Below, piece by piece: positions 7,455 to 57,043 of a stretch of 64,000 bases of DNA. This stretch comes from Gluconacetobacter johannae (GTDB lineage Bacteria; Pseudomonadota; Alphaproteobacteria; Acetobacterales; Acetobacteraceae): positions 1 to 64,000 of the forward strand of contig NZ_JABEQH010000017.1 of the NCBI RefSeq assembly GCF_014174305.1. The letters run 5' to 3'. The notes beneath the pieces were generated by a model, which saw only the letters and a list, made by a program, of their open reading frames with translations, had not been told where the DNA came from and made no database searches. The translations under genes were made by a program, and so were the position numbers. Numbering within the stretch: the first letter of the stretch is position 1; each line of letters begins with the position of its first letter.

Positions 7455-8174
7455 CTACCCTGGATGCCCGCCATGACCACCATCGCCATGGCCGCCCCCG
7501 CCGGGACCGCCGCCATGACCACCCTCGCCATGACCACCACCGCCGTGACCACCATCGCCATGGCCGCCCCCGCCGGGGCCGCCACCATGCCAGCCCTCGC
7601 CATGACCACCACCGCCGTGACCGCCCTCGCCATGGCCGCCCCCACCGGGACCGCCACCGCCATGGCCGCCCCCACCGGGGCCGCCACCATGCCAGCCGCG
7701 ATCACCGCCGCCATGGTCGGGACCATAGAAGGGCGGCGGCCGGCCCGGCCTGTTCCCCCCGCCCCGTCCCCCCCGATCGCCGCCGCCCCAGCGATCGCGG
7801 TCGGAAAACCACGGGCGGCCACGATAATGCGCGCCCCAGTAATTACCGAAGACGAAACCGGCCAGCGGCAGGCCCACCATGGGGCCGTAAGTTGCCAGCG
7901 GCCCCGCCCCGCCATTGTACAAAACCTGGATCCGGTCCGGCGGCGCCCAGCCGCGATAGGGGCCGTCGGCGATGTCGCACCAGCCCCATCCCGGTTCGCA
8001 CTCGAAAATCTCGATCGGCGTACCCGGCGGCAGCGACCCGACCACGGGATAGTTCGGCGACGGCCCGGCGAAAACATCGGTCCCGCCGACGATGACCCCC
8101 GGCGCCGCCAGTGCCGGGGACGCGACGCCGCCCAGCGCCAGAACCGTCAGGACGGCCTTCAAACGATGTTTCAT
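7455..8174 (-). CDS. Exported SH3-like protein with Gly/His-rich repeat tail
   Basis: The 239-residue product starts at the ATG (8174) that gives a signal peptide ending ALAA. A bacterial SH3-like domain covers about residues 25-85 (pattern TDVFAGPSPNYPVVGSLPPGTPIEIFECEPGWGWC..GWAP). A short hydrophobic, Gly-rich linker follows. From about residue 150 on, the tail is built of GGGGHG- and GGHGEG-type repeats. SH3b domains usually bind cell-wall or surface partners, and dense His-Gly repeats can bind metal ions; both roles are inferred here. The tail's DNA is a tandem low-complexity repeat and prone to length change. Confidence 0.8.
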   Translation of the reverse strand: MKHRLKAVLTVLALGGVASPALAAPGVIVGGTDVFAGPSPNYPVVGSLPPGTPIEIFECEPGWGWCDIADGPYRGWAPPDRIQVLYNGGAGPLATYGPMVGLPLAGFVFGNYWGAHYRGRPWFSDRDRWGGGDRGGRGGGNRPGRPPPFYGPDHGGGDRGWHGGGPGGGGHGGGGPGGGGHGEGGHGGGGHGEGWHGGGPGGGGHGDGGHGGGGHGEGGHGGGPGGGGHGDGGHGGHPG

Positions 8175-10961: not shown

Positions 10962-12068
10962 TCAGCCTCGGGTCCGCGCCCGCCGCAACATCCACATCGC
11001 CGCACCCGTCACCGAGAACAGGCACAGGGCCAGGCCGTTCAGCCCGACAAGCACGCTCCAGAGGTCGCCGGCCCACGTCGCGGACAGCCGGTTCTGATGC
11101 AGGATCCGGATCCAGGCATACAGGCGTTGCCCCACGCTTTGCGTGCCGGGATCGGCCGTCACCGTCATGGCGCCCGTGTGGCGGTCGATCCGGAGGGTTG
11201 TGGGCCGGTTGGCGCCATATCCCGGCTGCACCACGCGCACGGTGAACGGGCCCCGCGGCGCCCCCAGCTGGATGTCGCTGATCGTATCGTGCGGCCGGGC
11301 CTGGCGGATCGTCGCCAGCGCCATGTCCAGCCCGTCCTCCTCCATCGCTCCCGCATCCGCCGCGTGACGGTGGCCGCGCTGTCCGTCCGCTGCCATGGGC
11401 GGGCGTCTTGGCCCCGCCCCGCCGCCGGGAAACATGTCGGGGTAGCAGATCATCACCCCGCTGCCGGCCATGAAGCCGAGCAGCAGGAACATCCATGCCC
11501 CCACCGCCAGGTGCGTTTCCCGCCACAGCCTCAGCCCGCGCGCCTTGCGCGAAATCATCAGGCCGCGCCGCCATAATCCCGATTGCCACAGGTGGCTGCG
11601 CGGCCACCAGAGCACGATGCCGCTGACCGCCATCCCGACCAGGAAGACGCCGACCCACCCTATCGGCCCGCGCCCGACCGGCAGCAGCAGCAGGGCGGTA
11701 TGCAGCCGCATGACGAAGCCGTAGACGACGCTGCGCTTCTGCATGCCGACCACATGGCCCGACGACGGATCGACCAGGATATTGAGGTCGGGGCGACGCC
11801 CGCCCGCCGGGCCGAACCCGACGCTGGCCGGGTCATGGGGGCCCTGCGGCGGCGCATAGCGCAGCGCGCTGGTCCCGGCGGGCGCGGCCGCGCGGGCGGC
11901 CTGGACCAACTGGCTCGCAGGAAGCGGGGGGCCGGACCAGGTGATCTGCGGCCGCCCTGGCGCCTCCTGCGGCAGCACGACCATCAGGAACCCGGTCAGG
12001 CCCTGAAGGGCGAAGGGAATCGCCAGGGCCAGCCCGATCCAGCGATGCAGTTTACGCAGGAGCCGCAT
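10962..12068 (-). CDS. PepSY-domain inner-membrane protein (PiuB-like)
   Basis: The 368-residue product is a PepSY-TM protein of the type linked to iron-regulated membrane reductases. It opens with LRKLHRWIGLALAIPFALQGLTGF (first helix). Further helices follow near residues 130-160 and 185-210, then a soluble Gly/Arg/His-rich loop, a PepSY-like segment and a last helix. ATG 12068 puts the helix at the usual distance from the start; ATG 12095 is possible. It is the last gene of the minus-strand iron cluster, 79 bp after piuC. It probably helps reduce ferric siderophores at the inner membrane. Confidence 0.8.
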   Translation of the reverse strand: MRLLRKLHRWIGLALAIPFALQGLTGFLMVVLPQEAPGRPQITWSGPPLPASQLVQAARAAAPAGTSALRYAPPQGPHDPASVGFGPAGGRRPDLNILVDPSSGHVVGMQKRSVVYGFVMRLHTALLLLPVGRGPIGWVGVFLVGMAVSGIVLWWPRSHLWQSGLWRRGLMISRKARGLRLWRETHLAVGAWMFLLLGFMAGSGVMICYPDMFPGGGAGPRRPPMAADGQRGHRHAADAGAMEEDGLDMALATIRQARPHDTISDIQLGAPRGPFTVRVVQPGYGANRPTTLRIDRHTGAMTVTADPGTQSVGQRLYAWIRILHQNRLSATWAGDLWSVLVGLNGLALCLFSVTGAAMWMLRRARTRG

Positions 12069-17375: not shown

Positions 17376-18455
17376 TTATGTCGCATTCAGCCAGTTATCC
17401 ACAGCTTCGCGGTATGCATCCGGCATCTTCTTCGCATATCGGGTCACCATCGTGATGTTGGACCACCCGCCATCGCGCTGGAGCGCCAGCAGATCGCCAT
17501 GCAGGCAGTATTGCCATGTCGCCCATGTGTGCCGGAGATGGTGAGGGGTGACGTCGGATACCCATGTCCGCTTCGACTGGCCGGATGTCGACACCCATTC
17601 ATGCCAATGCCCTGGCAGCCCAGCCTTCCGGCATGCTGTCGCCCACGCGCACTTGATCTGACCGCCGCTTGTGCGGCCGCTGTCCAGATATCCCTCCGGG
17701 TTCGGCCGCTTCCGGGTTGCCGGCGGCCGGAAGATCCGTCCCGGTCGGTGCGGTAGCGCCGACAAGGCTGATATCGCCCGGTTCGGTAGGTCAACGTCCC
17801 GCTCCGTTCCCTGCTTCTGCCATAGCGTGGCGCGCCGGCCGACCAGATCGACGCTCTGCCATTCGATCTCCAGGGCCTCGGACAGGCGTGCTCCCGTGCA
17901 GATCAGGAAGATGATGAGCGGCTTGATGTGCGTGCCAGCAGCGCCCACGAGCGCATCTGCCTCATCTGGCTTCAGGTAGGGGGTGATCGCCTTTGCGACT
18001 CGGGGGACATCAAAGGCCGGCCGGTCGCACCATTTGCGAATCGCTGCATGCTCCAGAATTGCCCGCAGGGGGGTCAGCACCTGGCGCAGCTTTGTTGCCG
18101 CGCTGGCCTTGTGCCCATCCCGCAGGATCTTCGCATAGGCGCGATCGACGGAAACCTGATCAATCTGGTGCAGGGGTGTTGTCCCGAAATGCTGCACCAG
18201 CTTCTCGACGGCGCTCTGTGTGTTATGGTTCCGCTGGGCGTGGTTGATGTAGCTCTCTACGGCTGAGGCAAAGGTGACGACTGCTTTCTGGCCGTAGAGG
18301 CTGGCGTTCCAGAGTTCCGATTCCCGGTGTGCCCGGTATTCCTCCGCTTTCCGGCGCTCAGTTGCGCCAGTACTCTCGAAAACGCTTTGCCCCCGGACGG
18401 TGCCACGGACGTAGAAGAACGACGAGCCTGGGCGTGTGACGATTTTGAGGGGCAT
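17376..18455 (-). CDS. int: Phage tyrosine integrase
   Basis: The product is a tyrosine recombinase that integrates and excises the prophage at tRNA-Thr. With start 18455 (359 aa) the catalytic residues are R190 (TGARLSEAL), H305 and R308 (HHLRHTWAT), W331 (DGGWSNITM) and nucleophile Y340 (TRYAKKM). An N-terminal SAM-like core-binding domain spans about residues 55-145. An upstream in-frame start at 18515 would add 20 Pro/Arg-rich residues. The 5' end overlaps the preceding HTH gene by about 200 nt. Position beside attL is typical. Confidence 0.93.
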   Translation of the reverse strand: MPLKIVTRPGSSFFYVRGTVRGQSVFESTGATERRKAEEYRAHRESELWNASLYGQKAVVTFASAVESYINHAQRNHNTQSAVEKLVQHFGTTPLHQIDQVSVDRAYAKILRDGHKASAATKLRQVLTPLRAILEHAAIRKWCDRPAFDVPRVAKAITPYLKPDEADALVGAAGTHIKPLIIFLICTGARLSEALEIEWQSVDLVGRRATLWQKQGTERDVDLPNRAISALSALPHRPGRIFRPPATRKRPNPEGYLDSGRTSGGQIKCAWATACRKAGLPGHWHEWVSTSGQSKRTWVSDVTPHHLRHTWATWQYCLHGDLLALQRDGGWSNITMVTRYAKKMPDAYREAVDNWLNAT

Positions 18456-18649
18456 TCCAGGCTTTCGGTCAGGCGTCTCAGGTCTGTCGGGTGGAAGACG
18501 ATGCGGTTTCCCCACCGCCTATGGGTGGGTCCGCCGGCATGCGTCGGGTTCTCGCGAAGGTGCTGGAGTAGTTTCGTCCTGCCAATCCGGCCGCGCAGTC
18601 GTTCGAGGATATCGGCCACGGTCAGGTAGGTGGGGAGTGCTTCGCTCAT
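18257..18649 (-). CDS. Excisionase-like HTH DNA-binding protein
   Basis: The 130-residue product begins with a compact winged-HTH-like region ([37 protein letters not shown], residues 9-58), as in phage Xis/AlpA-type proteins. The last 65 residues are Ser/Arg-rich and lie over the start of int in another frame, so the functional gene may be only the first half. ATGA overlap with the zinc-finger gene upstream couples translation. Location directly before int fits a recombination directionality factor. Confidence 0.65.
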
Positions 18650-27757: not shown

Positions 27758-28758
27758 GAGCGTCGCATCTCCCCTCTCGGGTTCCCGATGCGGTGCTGGA
27801 CGAGATCCGGGCCCGGAATCCGCTTGCCTCCCTGATCGGCCGGACGGTGCGCCTGCGCCGGGTCGGGCGCTGCTTCCAGGGGCTGTGCCCGTTCCATTCC
27901 GAACGAAACCCATCGTTCGCGGTCTACGAAAGCGGCTATCACTGCTTCGGCTGCGGCGCGGGTGGGGATGCATTCTCCTGGCTGCAGCATTGCTGCGGCT
28001 GCTCGTTCCAGGAAGCGGTGAACACGCTGGCGCAGGAAGCAGGTATGCAGCCGCCCTTCGGCAGTTTCGGCATCACCAGCATGCCGGTTGGCGCGCCGGC
28101 GCCGGAAGTCTGCCTGTCGCATGAGGCAAACGACGAGGTCGTCAAGCGCAATCAGCAGTTCGCGTTTTCCTTGTGGCAGGAAAGCCGCGATCCCGCAGGG
28201 ACGCCGGTCGAGGTCTATCTTGGCACGCGGCGCCTCTCCCTGACGCCCGATACCGGCTATCTGCGCTTCCATCCGGCGTGCCCACGCGGACGGCGGGAGC
28301 GGCTGCCCGCGATGGTCGCCATGATGATCGACCCGGTCACGTTCGAACCGTGCGGACTTCACCGGACTTTTCTACGCACCGACGGCAGCGGAAAGGCGGA
28401 TGGCCAGGACAAGATGATGCTCGGTCGGGCCGGGATCATCTGCCTGGAGCGTCAGACCGAGATAGCCGGCGCCCTTGGCATCGCCGAGGGTATCGAGACG
28501 GCCCTGTCCGTCCAGCAGCACCTGCGCAATATCCCGATGTGGGCCTGCGCAACGGCAGGCGGCATTGAGAGGCTGCCGCCGCATCCTGCGATCCAAAAGC
28601 TGTCCATCTATGCCGACCGGGATGAGAACGGACACGGCCTGCGCGCGGCCCGCACCTGCGCGGCACGCTGGACGAAGGCGGGGGCCGACGTCGACATCAT
28701 CACGCCGCGCGAGGCGAAGGACTGGAACGACGTCATCATGCGGAGGGTCGTGCATTGA
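27754..28758 (+). CDS. Phage DNA primase (CHC2 zinc finger plus Toprim)
   Basis: The 334-residue product makes RNA primers for phage replication. A CHC2 zinc-binding domain holds ligands C45, H48, C64 and C67 (CPFH...CFGC). A Toprim-like domain follows with E245 in GIAEGIETALS and D288/D290 in YADRDENG. It is shorter than DnaG because the helicase-binding domain is missing; the next gene supplies an ATPase. Overlaps its neighbours by 4 nt. Confidence 0.9.
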   Translation: MRASHLPSRVPDAVLDEIRARNPLASLIGRTVRLRRVGRCFQGLCPFHSERNPSFAVYESGYHCFGCGAGGDAFSWLQHCCGCSFQEAVNTLAQEAGMQPPFGSFGITSMPVGAPAPEVCLSHEANDEVVKRNQQFAFSLWQESRDPAGTPVEVYLGTRRLSLTPDTGYLRFHPACPRGRRERLPAMVAMMIDPVTFEPCGLHRTFLRTDGSGKADGQDKMMLGRAGIICLERQTEIAGALGIAEGIETALSVQQHLRNIPMWACATAGGIERLPPHPAIQKLSIYADRDENGHGLRAARTCAARWTKAGADVDIITPREAKDWNDVIMRRVVH

Positions 28759-30128
28759 GCGACCCAATGGATTTCGACTTCGATCAACTCGCAGACATCG
28801 AGCGCTATGTGGCTGGTGCGCCGGCTCCGGAACCGGTCGACCCGGACGGCATTCGGCCACTGGCCTACCGCAACGACGTCAGTCCGCGCCGGGAAGCCTC
28901 TGAAGGCGAGATCCAGGCAACACCCCTGGCGAATCTTGACCTGGAGAGCATCCCGCCTCGGCGCTGGCTGTACGGTCGTGAATTGCTCAGGGGCTTCGTC
29001 TCGGTCCTGGGCAGCCCCGGGGGTGTGGGCAAAACGGCGTATACCATGGTCGTGGGGATGTCGGTGGCAACAGGCCGTTCCTTGCTTTCTCCCAATCCCC
29101 TCACCCCGGGGACGTTCCATCGGGTCCACAAGACCGGGGCCGTCTGGTTCTACAACCTGGAAGACCCCGAAGAAGAGATGCGCCGCCGCGTCAAAGCCGC
29201 GATCATGCATCACAAGATCGCCTACGAGACGATCAAGGATACCGTCTACATCGACAGCGGGCGCGACAAGCCGCTGATCATCGCCACGCGCGATGAGGGC
29301 GGCAACCTGGTGGCGTCGCCCGTCGTCGATGATCTCGTCGCCGAACTTCAGCGGCGCCAGATCGCGCTCCTTGTGGTCGATCCGTTCGTGCAGTCGCACT
29401 ACGCCGAGGAGAACCGGAACGACGAGATGAACATGGTGATGGCTTTGTGGGGCCAGGTCGCCCACCGCGCCGAATGTGCGGTCTGGCTGGTCCACCATTT
29501 CCGCAAGGGCGGCCAGGCCGGCGACAGCGAAGCCTTCCGTGGCGCCGGGGCGATCCAGGGGGCCGCGCGGGTCATGTCCACCCTGTCGGCCATGTCGAAG
29601 GATGAGGCGGCCAAGCTGAACATAGCGGACGACAAGCGCCGGTCCTATGTGCGCCTGGACAACGCGAAGGCCAACATGGGGCCATCCGCCACAGAGGCCG
29701 AATGGTACCAGCTCGTCGGTATCAACATCGGGAACGCGACCGAGGAATATCCGGACGGTGACAGTGTTCAGTCGGTCGAGCCGTGGGATCCGCCCAAGGT
29801 ATGGGATGATTTCCCTCCTCCGCTGATCGTCAAGATCCTCGAACAGATCGATCGCGGCCCCTCTCCGGGAGAGAAATATGCGCTTGCCAAGCAGGCGAAG
29901 GACCGATGGGCCGGGCACGTCATCGTGGAGTTTACCGGAAAGTCTGAGGATCAGGCGTCGAAGATCCTGAAGACGTGGAAAGAGAATGGCGTTTTCATTG
30001 AGGGAGAATATCGATCTTCCGCGCTTCAGCGCAGAATGACCGGCTGCATCACCGTCTCTCCCGACAAAATGTCTGAAATGCGTCAGTTGGCCGCGACCTA
30101 CCCTTCCGACGACGGAGACGAAGAATGA
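28755..30128 (+). CDS. RepA/AAA_25-type replicative ATPase
   Basis: The 457-residue product has a RecA-fold AAA_25 domain: Walker A GSPGGVGKT (residues 86-94), Walker B IALLVVDPF with D209, then the sensor stretch WLVHHFRKG. These enzymes act as phage or plasmid replicative helicases. TTG 28755 with GGAGG eight bases upstream and a 4-nt overlap with the primase gene is the best start; ATG 28767 is possible. Works with the adjacent primase. Confidence 0.85.
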   Translation: MSDPMDFDFDQLADIERYVAGAPAPEPVDPDGIRPLAYRNDVSPRREASEGEIQATPLANLDLESIPPRRWLYGRELLRGFVSVLGSPGGVGKTAYTMVVGMSVATGRSLLSPNPLTPGTFHRVHKTGAVWFYNLEDPEEEMRRRVKAAIMHHKIAYETIKDTVYIDSGRDKPLIIATRDEGGNLVASPVVDDLVAELQRRQIALLVVDPFVQSHYAEENRNDEMNMVMALWGQVAHRAECAVWLVHHFRKGGQAGDSEAFRGAGAIQGAARVMSTLSAMSKDEAAKLNIADDKRRSYVRLDNAKANMGPSATEAEWYQLVGINIGNATEEYPDGDSVQSVEPWDPPKVWDDFPPPLIVKILEQIDRGPSPGEKYALAKQAKDRWAGHVIVEFTGKSEDQASKILKTWKENGVFIEGEYRSSALQRRMTGCITVSPDKMSEMRQLAATYPSDDGDEE

Positions 30129-30836: not shown

Positions 30837-31990
30837 CCAACGGTTATAGATACAGACCTGTGTGAGCCCACTTTCTGAGTCCGATCGACCGGATGGTGTC
30901 AGGCAGGGCGGCAAGATTATTCCAAGCGGAACAGGCGGCGTCGATGATGTGATCGATGCCGTCGAAGACGGTGTTGGACAGCCAGTTGGCGCGAAGGAAC
31001 TGCCAGATATTCTCGACCGGGTTCAGTTCGGGAGCGCGGGACGGCAGGAAGATCAGGCTGATATTGCGGGGCAGCTTCAGCTTGTCGGTGGTATGCCACC
31101 CTGCTCGATCGAGCAGCACGACAGCGTGGGCAGCGCGGGCAGCGCGAGATTTCCTCGATATGCAATTGCATGCTGGCGGTACCGATGAACGGCAGCGCCA
31201 GGCCGGCGGCCTTGCCGCGCGCCGGGCAGATCGCCCCGAACAGCCAGGCATTGTCGTAGCGCTGGTCGGCCGGCTGGCGTGGCCGCGTGCCGCGCCGGGC
31301 CCATTGTCGAACGATGCCATTCTTCTGGCCGATCCGGGCCTCGTCCTGGAACCAGATCTCGACCGGTTTTCCCTTCGGCAGATGGCCGGTATGAGCGCTC
31401 AGGATGCGGGGGAAGTTTTTTTGAACGCTTCCATGACGGCAGGATCCTGTCCCGGATGGCGCGGCCGGGCGGTGATATAGGAAAAACCGAGCCGTTTCAG
31501 CAAGGTGGAAACGTGCCGTTCGTGGTAGACGACGCCGAAGCGCTCTTCGATCACGCGTTGCAGATCGATCCGGCGCCAGCGCACCACACCATCGCGCTGC
31601 CGATCCGGGCCCGCCTCCACCAGGGCCTTCAATTCGACCTGCTGTGCGGCGTTCAAGCGGCAGGCCGGCCCTGCGTGCTGATGATCGCGCAGGCCATCCG
31701 GCCCTTCGGCATTGAAGCGGTGCACCCAGTCCCGCAGCGTCTGGCGGTCCATACCACCCACGCGGGCGGCGTCCGTCCGGCTGGCCCCGTCACGGATCGC
31801 CGCCAGGGCCAGAAGCCGGCGCGCAGCGTTCACCTGCCGACTGCGCGCCGCAAGTCGCCTCAGATCAGAAGCCGAATAGTCATCCCGTAGCTTCACCGCC
31901 CTCGTCATCAGCCAGATCCTCCCCCATCAAGAGAATCAGAGCCCGAGCCATTCGTCACTTCACACACGAGTCAGTGGCCACGTCCTTTGG
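30837..31990 (-). mobile_element. IS630-family insertion sequence, 1.15 kb
   Basis: The ends read CCAACGG (left) and, inverted, CCAAAGG (right), with a second block of similarity (ACAGAC..GTGTGAG versus ACTGAC..GTGTGTGAA) inside. A TA dinucleotide lies directly outside each end (30835-30836, 31991-31992), the target duplication expected of IS630. The transposase runs on the minus strand and is broken. The IS sits between the replication operon and the accessory block of the prophage. Confidence 0.8.
30844..31908 (-). pseudogene. IS630-type transposase, frameshifted
   Basis: The first part (31908-31399, HTH region ending AVMEAFKKTSPAS) meets an A7 run (31416-31422 on the plus strand). A -1 slip there opens the frame continuing to WFQDEARIGQKNG..YDNAWLFGAICPARG..MQLHIEEIS, so this junction may be programmed. 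A second break near 31131-31148, in GCGC-rich repeats, shifts the frame again before AVVLLDRAGWHTT..PELNPVENIWQFLR, the DDE C-terminal half. It looks like a 2-nt loss (or 1-nt gain). The DDE residues are present but split, so the gene is probably inactive. Confidence 0.8.
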
Positions 31991-33835: not shown

Positions 33836-34179
33836 TCACGCCGCTTCCATTGCCCGCCGGACCGCCTCCGGCTCTCGCCACACCACACGCAACAGTGTCC
33901 GCATAGCGGGGTCAAGGCGCGCACGCCCTTGCTCCCAGTTCCGCCACATCGCGACCGGCATGCCGATCGGGGCCGCTATCGCCGTCTGTGTCATCCCCAT
34001 GCGGCGCCGAACCGTTGCTGGGATGGGATAGACGCCCCCAGGTCATCAGGAGGCCTCAGTGCCGTCCCACGCGCCTGGCGGGCTATATCCTCGTCCGTGG
34101 TCGTCCTGACGCGGTCCCAGTCGATCGTGGACCGACGGGACATCGCTTCCTTCAAAGTCATTCTCGCCATCTGCGCCAC
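33836..34179 (-). pseudogene. HigA-like HTH antitoxin broken by 5-bp duplication
   Basis: The first part (34179 leftward: TLKEAMSRRSTIDWDRVRTTTDEDIARQARGTALRPPDDLGASIP) resembles the N-terminal half of HTH antitoxins. The HTH itself (MGMTQTAIAAPIGMPVAMWRNWEQGR..) is in another frame and ends at 33836. The frames join if one copy of the tandem TGGGA TGGGA at 34019-34028 is removed. So a 5-bp duplication disrupted the gene. No toxin gene accompanies it, and it lies just downstream of an intact TA pair of similar type. A 25-codon frame at 33737-33814 further left is too short to judge. Confidence 0.7.
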
Positions 34180-34207: not shown

Positions 34208-34519
34208 TTACGCCTGAGCCAGCACCCGCTCGACCGCCTGGGGTTCCCGGTCGATCACCAGCAGAAGCGTCCTGGCGGCCTTCTCCGGCCGTCTCAGCCC
34301 CTGCTCCCAATCCCGCACCGCGTTGCGGCTGAACCCGAAGCGATTGGCAAAGGCTTCTCGAGTCAGACCGGTCCGGGCACGGATCTGGCGCACGTCCACG
34401 ACCGCCGGCGGGGACCATATGCGCGCCGCCGCACGCGTTCCCTCCAGGATCTGCAATCCCTCTTCGAGAGAGGCCAGCAGTTCGTCGGCGATGTTCTTCT
34501 TCGCGCGAGGCATCGTCAT
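34208..34519 (-). CDS. HTH antitoxin of type II TA module
   Basis: The 103-residue product has a C-terminal XRE HTH (IRARTGLTREAFANRFGFSRNAVRDWEQGLRRPEKAARTLLLVIDREP, residues 47-94), as in HigA-type antitoxins. The N-terminal part should bind the toxin. It follows the toxin gene with an ATGA overlap, the reversed toxin-antitoxin order typical of higBA. Probably autoregulates through the palindromes upstream of the toxin. Confidence 0.82.
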   Translation of the reverse strand: MTMPRAKKNIADELLASLEEGLQILEGTRAAARIWSPPAVVDVRQIRARTGLTREAFANRFGFSRNAVRDWEQGLRRPEKAARTLLLVIDREPQAVERVLAQA

Positions 34520-34854
34520 GTCCCTTTCCCTGCCATCATCTTCATGCGGGCAACGACCGCCAGCATAGCCTTACGCTGGTCGGGCGACGGATTGGCCTGC
34601 TCGTTCTTGCCGTAGATCAGGAGGGCGAGAGCAGGGAGGTCGTCCGACACCACGTACCAGATCACACGGAACGCGCCGCGCTTCCCTTGGCCGCCGGCCG
34701 CAAAGCGCATCTTCCGGATGCCGCCAAGCCCCGGAACCAGGTCCCCACCATAAGGGTCGCTTGCCAGCACCCTGATCAACTCGTTGCGCTCGTCCTTGTT
34801 CAGGAGGTCATCGGCGCGCTTGGTGAAGATCGAGGTTTCGGCGACCGTGTGCAT
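34516..34854 (-). CDS. RelE/HigB-type toxin
   Basis: The 112-residue product has the RelE-like fold pattern: ADDLLNKDERNELIRVLASDPYGGDLVPGLGGIRKMRFAAGGQGKRGAFRVIWYVVSDDLPALALLIYGKNEQ. The core strand RKMRF..GKRGAFRVIWY and Lys near YGKNEQ are typical of HigB2/RelE toxins that cut mRNA at the ribosome. ATG 34854 was chosen over 34914 because two operator palindromes lie directly upstream of it. It should stabilise the prophage. Confidence 0.82.
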   Translation of the reverse strand: MHTVAETSIFTKRADDLLNKDERNELIRVLASDPYGGDLVPGLGGIRKMRFAAGGQGKRGAFRVIWYVVSDDLPALALLIYGKNEQANPSPDQRKAMLAVVARMKMMAGKGT

Positions 34855-34865
34855 GGCACGATTGA

Positions 34866-34913
34866 TACCGCAGCGCGGCACATTTGGCAAGACTGAAATG
34901 CCGCATTGCGGCA
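34866..34913. promoter_or_regulatory. Two operator palindromes of the TA module
   Basis: TACCGC-AGC-GCGGCA (34866-34880) and TGCCGC-ATT-GCGGCA (34899-34913) are near-identical 15-bp palindromes 33 bp apart, 12-59 bp upstream of the toxin start. The placement is typical for TA autoregulation. Confidence 0.65.
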
Positions 34914-34925
34914 CTCGTTCGGGAT

Positions 34926-35039
34926 GGCGCGAACTTGCGAACTTCGACGAACTTTCAGAAATTTGGAAGTTCGCAGAACACCCGGAATACCGCCGCGAAC
35001 TTCTTCCGGTCCCTATAGAGAAGTTCGCAAGTTCGCGCC
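34926..35039. repeat. Nested palindromic array of GCGAACTT units
   Basis: A perfect 20-bp inverted repeat (34926-34945 and 35020-35039) encloses 74 bp with further copies. The unit GCGAACTTS occurs at 34929 and 34937. Its inverse is at 34966, the direct form at 34995, and the inverse again at 35020 and 35028. That makes six units in 110 bp, arranged symmetrically. It lies in a gene-free stretch between the TA module and the late operon. It could be an operator array, a replication origin with iterons, or a partition-like site. Confidence 0.75.
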
Positions 35040-35321
35040 CCGTTTTCGCCGCGAAAAGCCCCCCTGTGCCAGTGCGGTGCCCGCACTTCTGGGCACCCGC
35101 TCCGCTCGACCCAGAAGCGAGCTGTCCCAGGGAGGCTTGGAGCGTCTGGCGACCGGCCTACCCAGCGGGTCCCAACAGATGGCCTCCAACCAGTCCCTGA
35201 TGTAGGTGGGCAGGATATTTGGTCGCGTGGGATGCTTGAGCAGGCGACCCGAAATTCCCCCTTGCGCACCCCGCCAAAACATGCGCAAAGTAACCGCGCC
35301 ATATTCGCGTCCAACGCACGG

Positions 35322-35355: not shown

Positions 35356-35410
35356 ATGTCCGGAAGGCTCAGGCGGCGAGAGAGTGTGGCAAGGAAGGAC
35401 TGATCCCGGC

Positions 35411-36073
35411 ATGGCCGACTTGTCGATCAAGCTCGACACGACGGCCGTCACCCGAAAACTGGCTGCGTTTCGTCGGCAGATCTCGTTCGTCGTTGCCGGT
35501 GCAATCAACGATCTCGCGTTCCAGGCGATGCGTGCCGAAAACGCGGCGATGTCGGATATCTTCGCCCATCCTCGACCCTTCACCCATCGCTCTGCTCAGG
35601 TGGAGAAGCGGGCGACCAAGGCGGACCTCACAGCCGTCGTTTCATTGCGCGATGCCCAGGCCAAATACCTGACCCCCTACGAAACCGGCGGCCCGCACGA
35701 GACGCCGGGAAAGGCGCTGCTGGTTCCTGCCGATGTCAGGCTCGACCAATACGGGCAGTTGCCCAAAGGCGCGATCAAACGGCTTGCGGCGCGGCCTGAC
35801 GTGTTCTTCGGCACTGTCCGGGGCATCACGGGCTTCTGGCTCAGGCCGCCGACGCTCGACACCAAAGGGCGACCGAAGGGTGGCCGACGTGGCGCGATGA
35901 ACAGCCGTCTGCACCAGAATACGGGGCTGACGCTGTTGCTGAGGGTCGGGCAGAACAAGCCCGTCACGAAGCGGTTGAACTTCCGACGCAGGGCCATCGA
36001 CATCGTGGAGCGGAAGGGGGCCGATGCGATCCGGGGCGCGCTGCAGAAGGCATTGGCGACGGCGCGGCCCTGA
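35411..36073 (+). CDS. Phage minor-tail-type protein placed before terminase
   Basis: The 220-residue product resembles minor tail proteins of the GpZ/HK97-gp10 kind: VTRKLAAFRRQISFVVAGAINDLAFQAMRAENAAM, then RATKADLTAVVSLRDAQAKYLTPYETGG and a C-terminal LTLLLRVGQNKPVTKRLNFRRRAIDIV. ATG 35411 has AAGGAAGG about 14 bases upstream. Such genes usually lie after the capsid gene, so the position ahead of the terminase genes is unusual. The assignment is from pattern only. Confidence 0.55.
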   Translation: MADLSIKLDTTAVTRKLAAFRRQISFVVAGAINDLAFQAMRAENAAMSDIFAHPRPFTHRSAQVEKRATKADLTAVVSLRDAQAKYLTPYETGGPHETPGKALLVPADVRLDQYGQLPKGAIKRLAARPDVFFGTVRGITGFWLRPPTLDTKGRPKGGRRGAMNSRLHQNTGLTLLLRVGQNKPVTKRLNFRRRAIDIVERKGADAIRGALQKALATARP

Positions 36074-36249
36074 GGCGAAGTGTTGCATTCCGGCAACGGT
36101 CGATCGAGCCATGCGCATGGCGCGTGGCTAGGGGTGGTCATACCCCCCCCGTGCATGGGTCCCTCTGACCCACTCCCCCGATCGGGGGTATTGCGCCAGC
36201 CCGTACGATCCCTAGCTGAGGTCATTTTTTAGGGTTGCAGTTGCAGGTC
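36074..36249. other. Gap before terminase genes with CCCCCGATCGGGGG palindrome
   Basis: 176 bp without a gene, directly before the small terminase gene, where lambda-type phages carry cos. It contains the perfect 14-bp palindrome at 36175-36188 and another C/G-run inverted pair (GGGG..CCCC) near 36130-36150. It is a candidate cos or terminase-binding region. No lambda cosN match was seen. Confidence 0.4.
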
Positions 36250-36801
36250 ATGGCGGGATCCATCAGCCAGAGCGAAGCGGCCCGCCGAGCGGGCGTGAGT
36301 CGTGCCGCCATCCAGAAGCATCTAGCCTCAGGCAGGATTGTTTCGGACGGCAATAAGGTGGACCTCGCCTCGTTCGAGGTCTGGATGGCATGCCGGTCCG
36401 ACCTGCAACCCGGGGTGCAACCTGCGACCCCGCCGGTTGCAGTTCCGGGCCAGCCCTCCGAGGCACCTGAAACCGCGGCGGCGCACCTCATCAACGAGAA
36501 CGGGGCGCCCTATCAGACGCCCGAAGCCATCCGGATCAAGGAGAACTACAACGCCCTCCTGAAGCAGCTCGAATACGACCTGAAGTCCGGAAAGGTCGTC
36601 GAGGCCGCCCTGGTGACGAAAGCGGTGGGCGAGGAATACGCGCGGGTCCGCACACGCCTCCTGGCTATACCCGCGGAACAGGCGCCGGCGCTGCACCGAT
36701 GCAAGACCGTCGCCGAACTCCAGGACCGGCTCCTGACCCTCATCACCAGAGTCCTTGAAGAACTGACATCTGATGGAGATCCAGACCCCGGCCGGAGCTG
36801 A
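36250..36801 (+). CDS. Terminase small subunit (Nu1-like)
   Basis: The 183-residue product starts with an HTH (SISQSEAARRAGVSRAAIQKHLASGRI, residues 4-30), as in phage Nu1 proteins that bind cos DNA. A Pro-rich linker and a helical C-terminal domain (AIRIKENYNALLKQLEYDLKSGKVVEAALV) follow, which should contact the large subunit. ATG 36250 is preferred to TTG 36235. Overlaps the large-subunit gene by 29 nt. Confidence 0.82.
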   Translation: MAGSISQSEAARRAGVSRAAIQKHLASGRIVSDGNKVDLASFEVWMACRSDLQPGVQPATPPVAVPGQPSEAPETAAAHLINENGAPYQTPEAIRIKENYNALLKQLEYDLKSGKVVEAALVTKAVGEEYARVRTRLLAIPAEQAPALHRCKTVAELQDRLLTLITRVLEELTSDGDPDPGRS

Positions 36802-38803
36802 TCCCCAATACCTGCCCGGCTACGCGACATTCCTGGGCGGCCTGGCGGCGGCCCGCCGGGCCAACCTTCGGCCGCCGCCCAAGCTATCCCTGAGCGAATG
36901 GGCCGGGCGTTATGCGATCCTGTCGCGGGAAACGAGCGCGCAGACAGGCCGCTTCGAGGCATTCGCCTACCAGATCGGCATGATGGATGCCGTCACGGAC
37001 CCGACCGTCGAACAGGTCTCGGTGATGAAGTCGGCCCGAGTCGGCTACACCAAGATCCTGGATCACGTGGTCGGATATTACCTGCACCAGGATCCCTCCC
37101 CGATCCTGATGGTGCAGCCTCGCGAAAGCGATGCGGAAGACTACAGCAAGTCCGAAATCGCCCCGATGCTTCGGGACACGCCTGTGCTGGCCGAGATCGC
37201 CGGCGATCCGAAAGCCAAGTCGACCGAGCAGACCCTGCTGAAGAAGACTATGCTGAACGGGTCTTCCCTCACTCTCGTGGGGGCCAATAGCCCGGGCGGA
37301 TTCCGGCGCATCACGGCTCGCATCATCCTGTTCGATGAAGTTGACGGCTATCCCAGCGGCGGCGCGGGGGCGGAGGGCGATCAGATCGCCCTGGGCACGA
37401 AGCGGTCGGAGACCTTCTGGAACCGCAAGATCGTCGCCGGATCGACACCGACGGTTGCCGGCATCAGCCGTATCGAAAAGAGGTTCGATGAGGGCGACCG
37501 GCGCCGGTTTCATGTGCCGTGCCCGCATTGCGGGGAGGCGCAGGTTCTGGAATGGGGCGGCCCGGACTCGCCGCACGGGATCAAATGGGACAAGGCCGAG
37601 GACGGCGCGCATCTGCCGGAAACGGCGCATTACGTGTGCCGGCACAACGGCTGCATCATCGAGGACGTCGACAAGCCGGGCATGATCGCCGGCGGCGAAT
37701 GGATCGCCGAGGCGCCGTTCAAGGGCCATGCGTCGTTCCACATCTGCGCCCTCTATTCGCTGTTCCCGAACGCGGCCTGGTCGAAGCTGGTAGGCGAATG
37801 GCTGAAGGTGAAGGCCGACCCGCTCCAGCGGCAGACCTTCATCAACCTGGTCCTCGGCGAACCCTACGAGGACCGCGGGGACGGCGCGCTGAACGAGGTG
37901 ACGCTGGCCGCGCGGGTCGAGACTTGGGCGGCGGAGGTGCCTGACGGCGTCGCCGTGCTCACGGCCGCCGGCGATACGCAGGACGACCGCGTTGAACTGG
38001 AGATCGCCGGCTGGGGTCGCAATGAAGAGCGCTGGTCGATCGCCCACATCGTGATCGAGGGCGATCCAGACGGACCGGAATTGTGGGGGCGGGTCGATGA
38101 GGTCCTGAAGCGCCAGTGGTTCCGGGCAGACGGCCGACCATTCACCGTCATGGCTGCCTGCATCGACTCTGGCGGCCACCATACGCAGAAGGTCTACGAG
38201 TTCTGCAAGGCGCGGCTGGGCCGCAAGATCTGGGCCGTGAAGGGCGAATCCGCCCGCGGCGGCGCACGCTCGCCGGTCTGGCCGACAAAGCGGCCCACCG
38301 CGCGGACAAAGGCGTCCTTTCGTCCGGTCATCATCGGCGTCAATGCGGCGAAGGACGTCATTCGGAGCCGGCTGCACCTGGATCCCCCGAAAAATGGGGA
38401 ATCATGTGCGGGCTTCATGCATTACCCCGCCGACCGGGACATCAACTATTTCGCGCAGATGGTGGCCGAACGGTCGGTCCGGAAGCACGAACGCGGCCAG
38501 GTGTTCCGGGTCTGGGAGTTGTTGCCCGGTCGGCGGAACGAGGCCCTCGATCTGGCGGTCTACAGCTACGCCGCGCTGTGCGGTCTGCTCTATTTCGGCC
38601 TGCAACTGAACAAACGGGCCGATCAGGCCGCCGCGACCCTGCCGGATCTCGCCGCCCGACAGGAGGCGCCGCCGAGTGCAGCCGGCGACCCCGCTCCATC
38701 GGATCGCATCGGCCAGGAGGTGGCGGTGACAGACGGCCGCCCCCTGGCCAGGGCAGCACCTGAGCCGCCGAAGGCGCGGCGATCTCGCTGGGACTATTCG
38801 TGA
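36773..38803 (+). CDS. Terminase large subunit, GpA family
   Basis: The 676-residue product is the ATP-driven DNA packaging motor and nuclease, of the lambda GpA family. A Walker-A-like segment VMKSARVGYTK lies at residues 84-94 and Walker B IILFDEVD at 184-191. Zinc-like CPHCGEAQ (about residue 246) and the nuclease half follow (VLTAAGDTQDDRVELEIAGWG, CIDSGGHHTQ). Length is close to lambda GpA (641). It starts the lambda-like head module. Confidence 0.93.
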   Translation: MEIQTPAGADPQYLPGYATFLGGLAAARRANLRPPPKLSLSEWAGRYAILSRETSAQTGRFEAFAYQIGMMDAVTDPTVEQVSVMKSARVGYTKILDHVVGYYLHQDPSPILMVQPRESDAEDYSKSEIAPMLRDTPVLAEIAGDPKAKSTEQTLLKKTMLNGSSLTLVGANSPGGFRRITARIILFDEVDGYPSGGAGAEGDQIALGTKRSETFWNRKIVAGSTPTVAGISRIEKRFDEGDRRRFHVPCPHCGEAQVLEWGGPDSPHGIKWDKAEDGAHLPETAHYVCRHNGCIIEDVDKPGMIAGGEWIAEAPFKGHASFHICALYSLFPNAAWSKLVGEWLKVKADPLQRQTFINLVLGEPYEDRGDGALNEVTLAARVETWAAEVPDGVAVLTAAGDTQDDRVELEIAGWGRNEERWSIAHIVIEGDPDGPELWGRVDEVLKRQWFRADGRPFTVMAACIDSGGHHTQKVYEFCKARLGRKIWAVKGESARGGARSPVWPTKRPTARTKASFRPVIIGVNAAKDVIRSRLHLDPPKNGESCAGFMHYPADRDINYFAQMVAERSVRKHERGQVFRVWELLPGRRNEALDLAVYSYAALCGLLYFGLQLNKRADQAAATLPDLAARQEAPPSAAGDPAPSDRIGQEVAVTDGRPLARAAPEPPKARRSRWDYS

Positions 38804-56230: not shown

Positions 56231-57043
56231 ATGGAACTGATCATCGCGCCCAATACGGTGACGGAAGCAAACCGGGATGTGATGCCTGTAACGGGCACAC
56301 CCGGTTGGGCGACCGATGGAAATCCCGCACAGAATATCCCGGCAACGGGCGACCTGGCCTGTCATTACAACATGATGATGGCAGAGATCGTACAGACGAT
56401 CCTTGATGCGGGATTGACTCTCGACCGCACCAATTGGGGGCAGCTGTCAGCAGCAATCCAGAAATTCGTCGCAAATGAAACCACGCGCGCTACGACGGTC
56501 GAAAGCAACCTGCAATCCGGCAAGGCCGCCGTCGCGGATCTGCAGGCCGAGACCGCGCGGGCTGAAGCTGCGGAGGCAGCCCTGCAGGCCGGCAAGGCCG
56601 CCGTCGCGGACCTGCAGGCCGAGACCGCGCGGGCTGAAGCTGCAGAGGCAGCCCTGCAGGCTGGCATCGCTCCGCTCGCACCCGAATCATGGGTTCTCCA
56701 AGCGCTCCTGAGCGGCACTGGATTGAGCCAGGCGAAAGCCAACCCGGGTTATCAGATGTTGCCCGGCGGCTTCATTCTCCAGTTCGGGGCGATGAATAGC
56801 GGGAGCGGAGGGACGACCTCTTTGCAGTTCCCCGTTATGTTCCCCTCTTCGGGTCTGTCGCTTATCGCGTTGGAGGGGAGCGCAAGCGGATCGTGGGCAT
56901 CCGGCGAACCGACTTTGCATGGGGCTTGGCAGGGCATTCAGAACGACGGAGCCACGGTCTATTCCATGAAATTCAGCGGATCGGGCGGCGGATGGTCTGG
57001 GGCCTCGGGCCTCTACTTTTTCTGGTTCGCGATAGGATTCTGA
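56231..57043 (+). CDS. Tail fibre protein with coiled-coil repeats
   Basis: The 270-residue product has an N-terminal baseplate-binding region. Two exact 24-residue coiled-coil repeats (residues 94-141; LQAGKAAVADLQAETARAEAAEAA, here abbreviated LQ..EAA) follow. The C-terminal receptor-binding domain is of the gp53/collar type (GYQMLPGGFILQFGAMNSGSGGTTSLQFPVMFP..). It should bind the host surface. Fibre assembly is likely aided by the next gene. Confidence 0.82.
   Translation: MELIIAPNTVTEANRDVMPVTGTPGWATDGNPAQNIPATGDLACHYNMMMAEIVQTILDAGLTLDRTNWGQLSAAIQKFVANETTRATTVESNLQSGKAAVADLQAETARAEAAEAALQAGKAAVADLQAETARAEAAEAALQAGIAPLAPESWVLQALLSGTGLSQAKANPGYQMLPGGFILQFGAMNSGSGGTTSLQFPVMFPSSGLSLIALEGSASGSWASGEPTLHGAWQGIQNDGATVYSMKFSGSGGGWSGASGLYFFWFAIGF
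56510..56653 (+). repeat. Two 72-bp tandem repeats in fibre gene
   Basis: Units 56510-56581 and 56582-56653 differ at only a few bases and encode the fibre's coiled-coil repeat. A third partial unit (CTGCAGGCTGGC) follows. Recombination here would change fibre length. Confidence 0.8.

What the first reader, a model, noticed from the sequence alone, without database searches (positions are those of the whole stretch)
34926..35039. Six GCGAACTT units in a perfectly symmetric 114-bp palindromic array
A 20-bp perfect inverted repeat encloses two more inverted units, with 74 bp between the outer arms. No gene covers it. The position between the TA module and the late-operon terminator suggests a control site for late transcription, a replication origin or a partition-like site. 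None of the annotated genes explains it.
Basis: seen in the sequence. Interest (0 to 1): 0.7.

Follow-up and report, generated by a model that had tools for sequence, protein, structure and literature searches.

The report
Prophage replication origin read by helicase
The palindromic repeat cluster is most likely the start point of DNA replication of a prophage in an acetic acid bacterium, and it looks like one of a widespread, apparently undescribed family in which each phage's replication helicase seems to recognise its own distinct repeat placed downstream of its gene.

Summary
The array is real: seven GAACTT-type units (six exact GCGAACTT, one imperfect) at 34926-35039, with a perfect 20-bp outer inverted repeat; the inner units are not mirror-symmetric. 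It is far beyond chance. Two same-genus prophages keep it beside different terminase genes, so packaging does not explain it. It tracks the prophage's RepA-type (AAA_25) helicase: of 119 distinct helicase loci, 87 carry an array of short repeated units, direct and inverted, within 900 bp after the helicase stop, and 83 of those 87 hold a short-loop hairpin (controls 21 of 82). In this window the array lies 4.8 kb from the helicase, with transposase-like and toxin-antitoxin genes between. Unit sequence differs between phages and follows the helicase's C-terminal winged helix, not its ATPase core. One wing residue matches the unit class in 70 of 74 helicases and in 22 of 23 rows left out of that fit; a tree-branch test of this is not robust. 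Best reading: an iteron-type origin bound by the helicase itself, resembling the origins of phage-inducible islands and RSF1010 but a member of neither. Origin activity and DNA binding are inferred, not shown.

The parts
34926..35039 (.). Iteron-like array, 7 units in order + + + - + - -; proposed origin core
34929..34936 (+). unit 1 GCGAACTT
34937..34944 (+). unit 2 GCGAACTT (8-bp period with unit 1)
34947..34954 (+). unit 3, imperfect (ACGAACTT)
34967..34974 (-). unit 4
34995..35002 (+). unit 5; with unit 6 encloses a stretch with CCCTATAG
35021..35028 (-). unit 6
35029..35036 (-). unit 7
35046..35140 (.). about 95-bp GC-rich non-coding flank with nested inverted repeats, nearly identical in three prophages of the genus that have different terminase genes; role unknown (origin accessory hairpins, terminator or RNA)
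   Evidence: alignment; DNA fold z -1.9 and -2.2, a modest signal
28755..30128 (+). RepA-type helicase (AAA_25) with C-terminal winged helix; proposed reader of the array
   Evidence: PF13481 E 3.8e-37; RSF1010 RepA 1g8y E 3.6e-32 (profile A3); model pLDDT 89.8
29802..30092 (+). coding stretch of the winged helix (residues 350-446); residue 426 at the wing loop
27754..28758 (+). DnaG-like primase (CHC2 zinc finger + Toprim), directly upstream of the helicase
30844..31908 (-). transposase-like ORFs lying between helicase and array (IS630-like by recall, not tested)
   Evidence: ORFs 30844-31320 and 31399-31908
34208..34914 (-). HTH antitoxin-like and RelE-like toxin genes on the near side of the array (RelE match is below Pfam's cut-off)
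35384..36073 (+). minor tail protein, first late gene beyond the array
   Evidence: phrog_1924
36235..38803 (+). terminase small and large (GpA-type) subunits

Best explanation
The array is the replication origin (an iteron-type ori) of the prophage's primase-helicase replicon. The RepA-type AAA_25 helicase (28755-30128) carries a C-terminal winged helix that binds the AAGTTCGC units, so the helicase acts as its own initiator. Bound copies in both orientations would load helicase rings at the array. Opened DNA would expose hairpins, from which the co-encoded DnaG-like primase starts synthesis. Steps tested computationally here: linkage of arrays to the helicase gene, presence of a hairpin in the relatives' arrays, domain architecture, and covariation of the unit with the winged helix. 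Steps inferred: binding, melting, loading, priming and origin activity.
For: (1) Linkage: 59 helicase places outside the same-genus trio were found in 397 genomes of the family; 58 could be tested and 41 have an array (at least 5 copies of a 7-mer in 220 bp, p<=0.01 against 100 shuffles) within 900 bp after the stop; in copy number, 0 of 58 reach 5 inside the helicase gene and 1 of 55 at 1.5-2.5 kb. In IMG/VR 51 of 66 distinct loci have it; copy-number controls 1 of 66 inside the gene, 3 of 60 further on. (2) A short-loop hairpin (stem>=6) lies in 83 of 87 arrays against 21 of 82 control stretches. (3) Unit distance correlates with winged-helix distance given the ATPase core (partial r 0.243, p 0.0005) but not with the core given the winged helix (0.055, p 0.21); it holds without the window clade, with complete units only and without two rows that hold a stop (0.247, p 0.001). 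(4) Lys at residue 426 goes with GGCG-type units: 47 Lys/GGCG and 23 non-Lys/other against 4 discordant of 74; in 23 rows not used for that fit 22 agree, the other having a gap there (some are near-duplicates). (5) The helicase core matches RSF1010 RepA, and the model shows a winged helix with wing strands 414-420 and 427-434. (6) Other contexts: next gene SSB in L076; the circular phage-like plasmid of Rhodoplanes serenus has an 8-copy array that by eye encloses an AT-rich stretch right after the helicase. (7) G006 and G013 keep the array next to different terminase genes, and 6 of 8 units in G013 have changed G to C in front of CGAACTT.
Against: In this window the array is 4.8 kb from the helicase; none follows the helicase stop itself (best 4 copies). 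The window's array has no GC-rich short-loop hairpin inside (best stem 10 bp around a 14-nt loop) and no strong AT-rich melting stretch. No DnaA-box-like site lies near (one in 64 kb, at 17395). GC skew shows no clear switch there. 32 of 119 distinct helicase loci did not meet the array criterion, and Rhizobium phage RHph_X2_26 (32% identity) shows no array. Along the protein there is a second, weaker covariation peak at residues 105-129 in the ATPase core (0.21-0.26; wing 0.39-0.44). The branch test for residue 426 is fragile: 8 of 13 unit changes shared a branch with 14 residue changes (7.5e-7), but only 6 of 13 (3.5e-4) after two rows were dropped and the tree remade; 361 columns had been scanned, so this does not survive correction. 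No binding or replication was measured.
Confidence: 0.75

Rival explanations
1. Late-operon control region: a phage regulator binds the array to switch on the rightward late genes, perhaps with the conserved 95-bp flank as an RNA antitermination element.
For: Position between early genes and late operon in this window and, by eye, in L079 and L081; the 95-bp flank is strongly conserved in three prophages of the genus and has nested inverted repeats.
Against: In L076 the array is followed by SSB and in L090 by DUF6362. The unit covaries with the helicase winged helix. No shared regulator gene was identified, though none was searched for systematically.
Confidence: 0.1
2. Operator of the neighbouring toxin-antitoxin operon (autoregulation); the toxin ORF starts about 12 bp from the array.
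For: In all three same-genus prophages the array lies just upstream of a toxin-antitoxin operon.
Against: The toxins differ (RelE-like here, BrnT in G006 and G013) while the array is kept; in most distant loci the array starts within 120 bp of the helicase stop (32 of 41 and 56 of 62).
Confidence: 0.05
3. Packaging (cos/pac) site recognised by the terminase small subunit.
For: Upstream of terminase, as lambda cosB sites are (recalled).
Against: Same array with different terminases: GpA-type large subunit here, a Terminase_2 small subunit in G006 and a Terminase_6 large subunit in G013.
Confidence: 0.03
4. Partition (centromere-like) or copy-control site of a plasmid-state prophage.
For: Some relatives are circular phage-like plasmids, one with a ParA gene; iterons can also serve copy control (recalled).
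Against: An integrase lies in this prophage; the unit tracks the helicase; no Par protein was tested.
Confidence: 0.05

Closest known systems
Replication origins of phage-inducible chromosomal islands (PICI pri-rep-ori)
   Same: Origin immediately 3' of the replication initiator gene, two sets of iterons, allelic variants of the initiator (PMC6092414: abstract and passages seen).
   Different: PICI origins flank an AT-rich region; here a GC-rich hairpin is usual. The initiator here is a RepA-type RecA-fold helicase; that PICI/P4 initiators are SF3-type is recalled. [quoted passage not shown]
RSF1010 (IncQ) oriV with RepA, RepC, RepB' and ssiA/ssiB
   Same: Helicase core homologous to RepA; iterons plus stem-loops (RSF1010 description from passages of PMC4234260).
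   Different: In RSF1010 the separate RepC binds the iterons. The listed IncQ-type records match only query residues 77 to at most 368 (227 further records not listed). Here a winged helix is fused to the helicase. A search for RepC in the own genome found nothing but its controls were silent too.
Phage P4 alpha protein with ori/crr
   Same: One protein recognises the origin, unwinds and is coupled to a primase (passages; repeat details recalled).
   Different: P4 alpha is a different, SF3-type helicase (recalled); not compared by sequence here.
pRN1 (Sulfolobus plasmid) origin
   Same: C-terminal winged helix on the replication protein; origin is a stem-loop 3' of the gene (PMC4234260 passages).
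   Different: SF3 helicase and archaeal-type primase; no iterons (same passages).
RepA-type origins of extrachromosomal mycobacterial prophages
   Same: Phage-encoded protein that drives prophage replication, ori in or next to its gene (PMC7157519 passages).
   Different: A 320-350-residue plasmid-type initiator with an N-terminal HTH; the authors found no repeated motifs.
Lambda ori / O protein iterons
   Same: Phage iteron origin with a cognate DNA-binding initiator (recalled).
   Different: Lambda O is not a helicase and its iterons lie inside its own gene (recalled).

Membership tests
Iteron-type replication origin | Multiple short repeats with a shared consensus next to a replication gene | tested here: inconclusive
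   repeats met and relatives' arrays follow the helicase; in this window the array is displaced by 4.8 kb
Iteron-type replication origin | Repeats recognised by the cognate initiator | tested here: inconclusive
   covariation only; no binding data
Iteron-type replication origin | AT-rich melting region (usual, not universal; recalled) | tested here: not met
   not in this window's array; seen by eye in R. serenus plasmid 1
Iteron-type replication origin | Autonomous replication from the site | not testable with these tools
   needs experiment
PICI-type ori | Origin immediately 3' of pri-rep | tested here: inconclusive
   met for most relatives with arrays; not for this window
PICI-type ori | Two iteron sets flanking an AT-rich region | tested here: not met
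   no AT-rich centre here; relatives mostly have a hairpin
IncQ RepA helicase family | RepA RecA-fold helicase core | tested here: met
IncQ replicon | RepB' type primase | tested here: not met
   primase next to the helicase is DnaG-like
IncQ replicon | RepC iteron-binding protein | tested here: inconclusive
   no hit in the own genome, but the control genomes were silent as well; 13 window proteins scanned, none is RepC
Packaging site (cos/pac) | Site conserved with its terminase | tested here: not met

The most novel reading that the evidence does not exclude
A large, undescribed family of proteobacterial phage replicons in which a RecA-fold (RepA-type) hexameric helicase is its own origin-recognition protein. 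A C-terminal winged helix reads a phage-specific repeat array placed 3' of the helicase gene, and a single wing position largely predicts the repeat class, so phages carry different origin 'barcodes' (incompatibility groups) that change together with the protein.
Probability: 0.57. Interest if true: 0.72.

Novelty: new variant of a known kind. Interest (0 to 1): 0.6.

Why it matters
It suggests origins for many temperate phages and phage-plasmids of Alphaproteobacteria and some other Proteobacteria, and predicts which protein reads them. If right, it shows a RecA-fold replicative helicase fused to its own origin reader, a layout so far described for P4, PICI and pRN proteins (SF3 type, recalled), and gives a sequence-based link between protein and origin that simple binding assays can test.

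Tried and rejected
Rfam: only chance-type hits that reflect the hairpin (mir-9456 at 29 bits, gathering score 80). The exact 16-mer in IMG/VR: 21 loci; the cluster scan showed at most three scattered same-strand copies in five of them, so they were not used. L028 and L034/L035 were chance-type matches. blastn of the array in phages and plasmids: no match. The core pattern in 299 family genomes hit only the own genome. GC skew and AT content did not point to an origin. DnaA-box search: nothing near. A RepC search was uninformative. Late-control, packaging, TA-operator and partition readings were weighed and ranked low. Foldseek placed the helicase core; viral hits were mostly primase/helicases of uncultured phages.

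Rows dropped: L136 (duplicate), L215 and L118 (too little downstream sequence), L230 (no downstream). 310 relatives were found, 80 kept by the tool, 79 taken, 78 tested. For the covariation tests 114 helicases were aligned, 91 had a usable unit and 74 remained after 90% identity filtering; 23 were excluded for unclear unit register, 16 of which carry GGCG-type units. Arrays were called from exact 7-mers, so degenerate ones (L216, L217, L219, L227) count as misses or were judged by eye only.

Full report
WHAT IS THERE. The window is part of a genome of the Gluconacetobacter/Nguyenibacter group: contigs of two same-genus genomes, G006 and G013, have the same lengths as records titled Gluconacetobacter sacchari and Nguyenibacter vanlangensis. 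A prophage lies between an integrase (17376-18515) and roughly 62 kb. The array at 34926-35039 has seven units, six of them exact GCGAACTT, in the order + + + - + - -. Shuffles do not reproduce it. It is not fully symmetric: the outer 20-bp arms are, the inner units are not.

RELATIVES IN THE GENUS. Of 14 genomes of the genus, two others (G006, G013) carry the array; three more have short partial matches, one of them a remnant of the flank and two chance-type. Unit order is similar, and about 95 bp on the late side (35046-35140) are nearly identical. In G013 six of eight units have C instead of G before CGAACTT, a concerted change as expected for a site that follows a DNA-binding protein, though a hairpin constraint could do the same. 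The genes beyond the array differ. Here they are a minor tail protein and a GpA-type terminase. G006 has a Terminase_2 small subunit and G013 a Terminase_6-type large subunit. On the other side lie toxin-antitoxin genes, RelE-like here and BrnT in the other two. So neither terminase nor toxin explains the array.

THE GENERAL PATTERN. The three prophages carry a DnaG-like primase (here; by resemblance for the other two) and a RepA-type AAA_25 helicase. Searching that helicase in 397 genomes of the family gave 56 genomes with matches. All 59 places outside the trio were fetched. Of 58 with enough sequence, 41 have a dense array within 900 bp after the helicase stop, 32 of them starting within 120 bp of it; the 17 that fail are listed, several with 4 copies. 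In copy number the controls are 0 of 58 inside the gene and 1 of 55 further downstream. In IMG/VR, 78 of 79 loci could be tested and 66 are distinct; 51 of 66 have the array; controls 1 of 66 and 3 of 60. Pooled, 87 of 119 distinct loci have it. Outside the family, 9 of 15 testable loci from sampled class and phylum genomes have it, including 4 of 5 from genomes given as same phylum but not same class. Among named phages only RHph_X2_26 of seven hits was looked at; it has no array. The units differ: AATGGCGCA, AGTGGCGCA, AACGGCGCA, AACCGTAGCA, AAGTCAGCA and others, with AAGTTCGC in this window. A frequent frame is AA-nnnn-GCA (my reading). The array also holds a hairpin with a short loop in 83 of 87 cases against 21 of 82 controls.

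WHY THE HELICASE IS THE LIKELY READER. A profile of 60 helicases matches only RSF1010 RepA among solved structures by sequence at E up to 0.01 (1g8y, E 3.6e-32), and RepA is the best fold match. The listed IncQ-type plasmid records match only the core. The rest, residues 350-446, is a winged helix in a confident model (mean pLDDT 89.8; helices 355-367, 379-384, 387-394, 398-410; wing strands 414-420, 427-434). Across 74 non-redundant helicases, unit distance follows this domain given the core (partial r 0.243, p 0.0005) and does not follow the core given the domain (0.055, p 0.21). Six other blocks of the same length give between -0.06 and 0.07 on the full set. In sliding windows the peak is at 415-439 (0.39-0.44); a weaker one at 105-129 (0.21-0.26) is unexplained. 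The strongest column is 426, at the wing loop: Lys goes with GGCG-type units (47 of 49 Lys loci), other residues with other units (23 of 25). In the 23 rows set aside earlier, 22 agree, though some are near-duplicates of each other. A branch test gave 8 shared of 13 unit and 14 residue changes (7.5e-7), but 6 of 13 (3.5e-4) once two rows with stops were removed and the tree was remade; with 361 columns scanned this is not significant after correction. The association itself therefore rests on concordance and on the partial correlation, not on the branch count. The window has Arg at 426 and a non-GGCG unit, consistent with the rule.

CONTEXT FROM PHAGE-PLASMIDS. Circular elements carry the same module. 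Rhodoplanes serenus plasmid 1 (53.8 kb, with terminase, portal and capsid genes; 55 of 72 features seen) has eight GCGTCAC-type units right after the helicase, by eye enclosing an AT-rich stretch. Methylobacterium indicum pVL1_6 (31.5 kb, tape-measure gene, ParA, no other Rep among the 33 of 39 features seen) and two Microvirga plasmids have degenerate AGGTGGGG-type arrays by eye; one Microvirga plasmid also has RepB and RepC. Gene tables of that collection are incomplete.

THE WINDOW'S PECULIARITY. Here the array is 4.8 kb from the helicase. Transposase-like ORFs (30844-31908), other ORFs and the toxin-antitoxin genes lie between. In G006 the gap is about 1.2 kb and in G013 about 3.6 kb. The simplest account is that cargo entered between helicase and array. 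Whether the prophage still replicates is unknown.

KNOWN SYSTEMS. The organisation resembles PICI origins, iterons immediately 3' of the initiator (PMC6092414, abstract and passages). It also resembles RSF1010 oriV (iterons, RepA helicase, stem-loops) and pRN1 (C-terminal winged helix, stem-loop 3' of the gene), both from passages of PMC4234260. Mycobacterial prophages with a RepA-like initiator (PMC7157519, passages) use a different protein and show no repeats. Ten literature searches, some with capped listings, listed no paper whose title or abstract start describes this helicase-array pairing; the library is open-access only, so prior description elsewhere is possible.

VERDICT. Origin of replication, read by the helicase: about three in four. 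The link between array and helicase gene is the firmest part; binding and initiation remain to be shown.

Noticed in passing
L096 (own genome G000:C20), just after position 12060: A second, distant copy of the helicase (about 30% identity) in the same genome is followed by its own array with a different unit (GCACGGA type) and a CCCTATAGGG stretch; it has 4 exact copies and so fails the formal criterion.
   Followed up: partly
window 35046-35140: 95-bp GC-rich flank conserved in three prophages with different terminase genes; nested inverted repeats. Could be accessory origin hairpins, a terminator or a regulatory RNA.
   Followed up: partly
window 33836-34179 (-): By eye, a remnant of the HTH antitoxin gene that accompanies BrnT in G006 and G013, split over two frames here with no BrnT beside it; a RelE/HTH pair sits in its place.
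   Followed up: no
L090 2470-3138: A DUF6362 gene starts inside the array, so the repeats there are also translated into its N-terminus; similar by eye in other loci of the family.
   Followed up: no
L077, L078, L089: Helicase-array modules with, by eye, non-phage-looking genes next to them on the fetched stretch: remnants or satellites?
   Followed up: no
L033 1501-1549 (G002): A lone 50-bp remnant of the conserved flank without the array.
   Followed up: partly
L096, L129, L131, L231: CCCTATAGGG or CCCTATAAGGG recurs inside arrays of distant lineages, and CCCTATAG in the window's; might be a primase start site.
   Followed up: no
helicase residues 105-129: Second covariation peak with the repeat unit, in the ATPase core; unexplained.
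   Followed up: no
window 7469-7820 and 56540-56660: Other dense short-repeat stretches, inside predicted ORFs.
   Followed up: no
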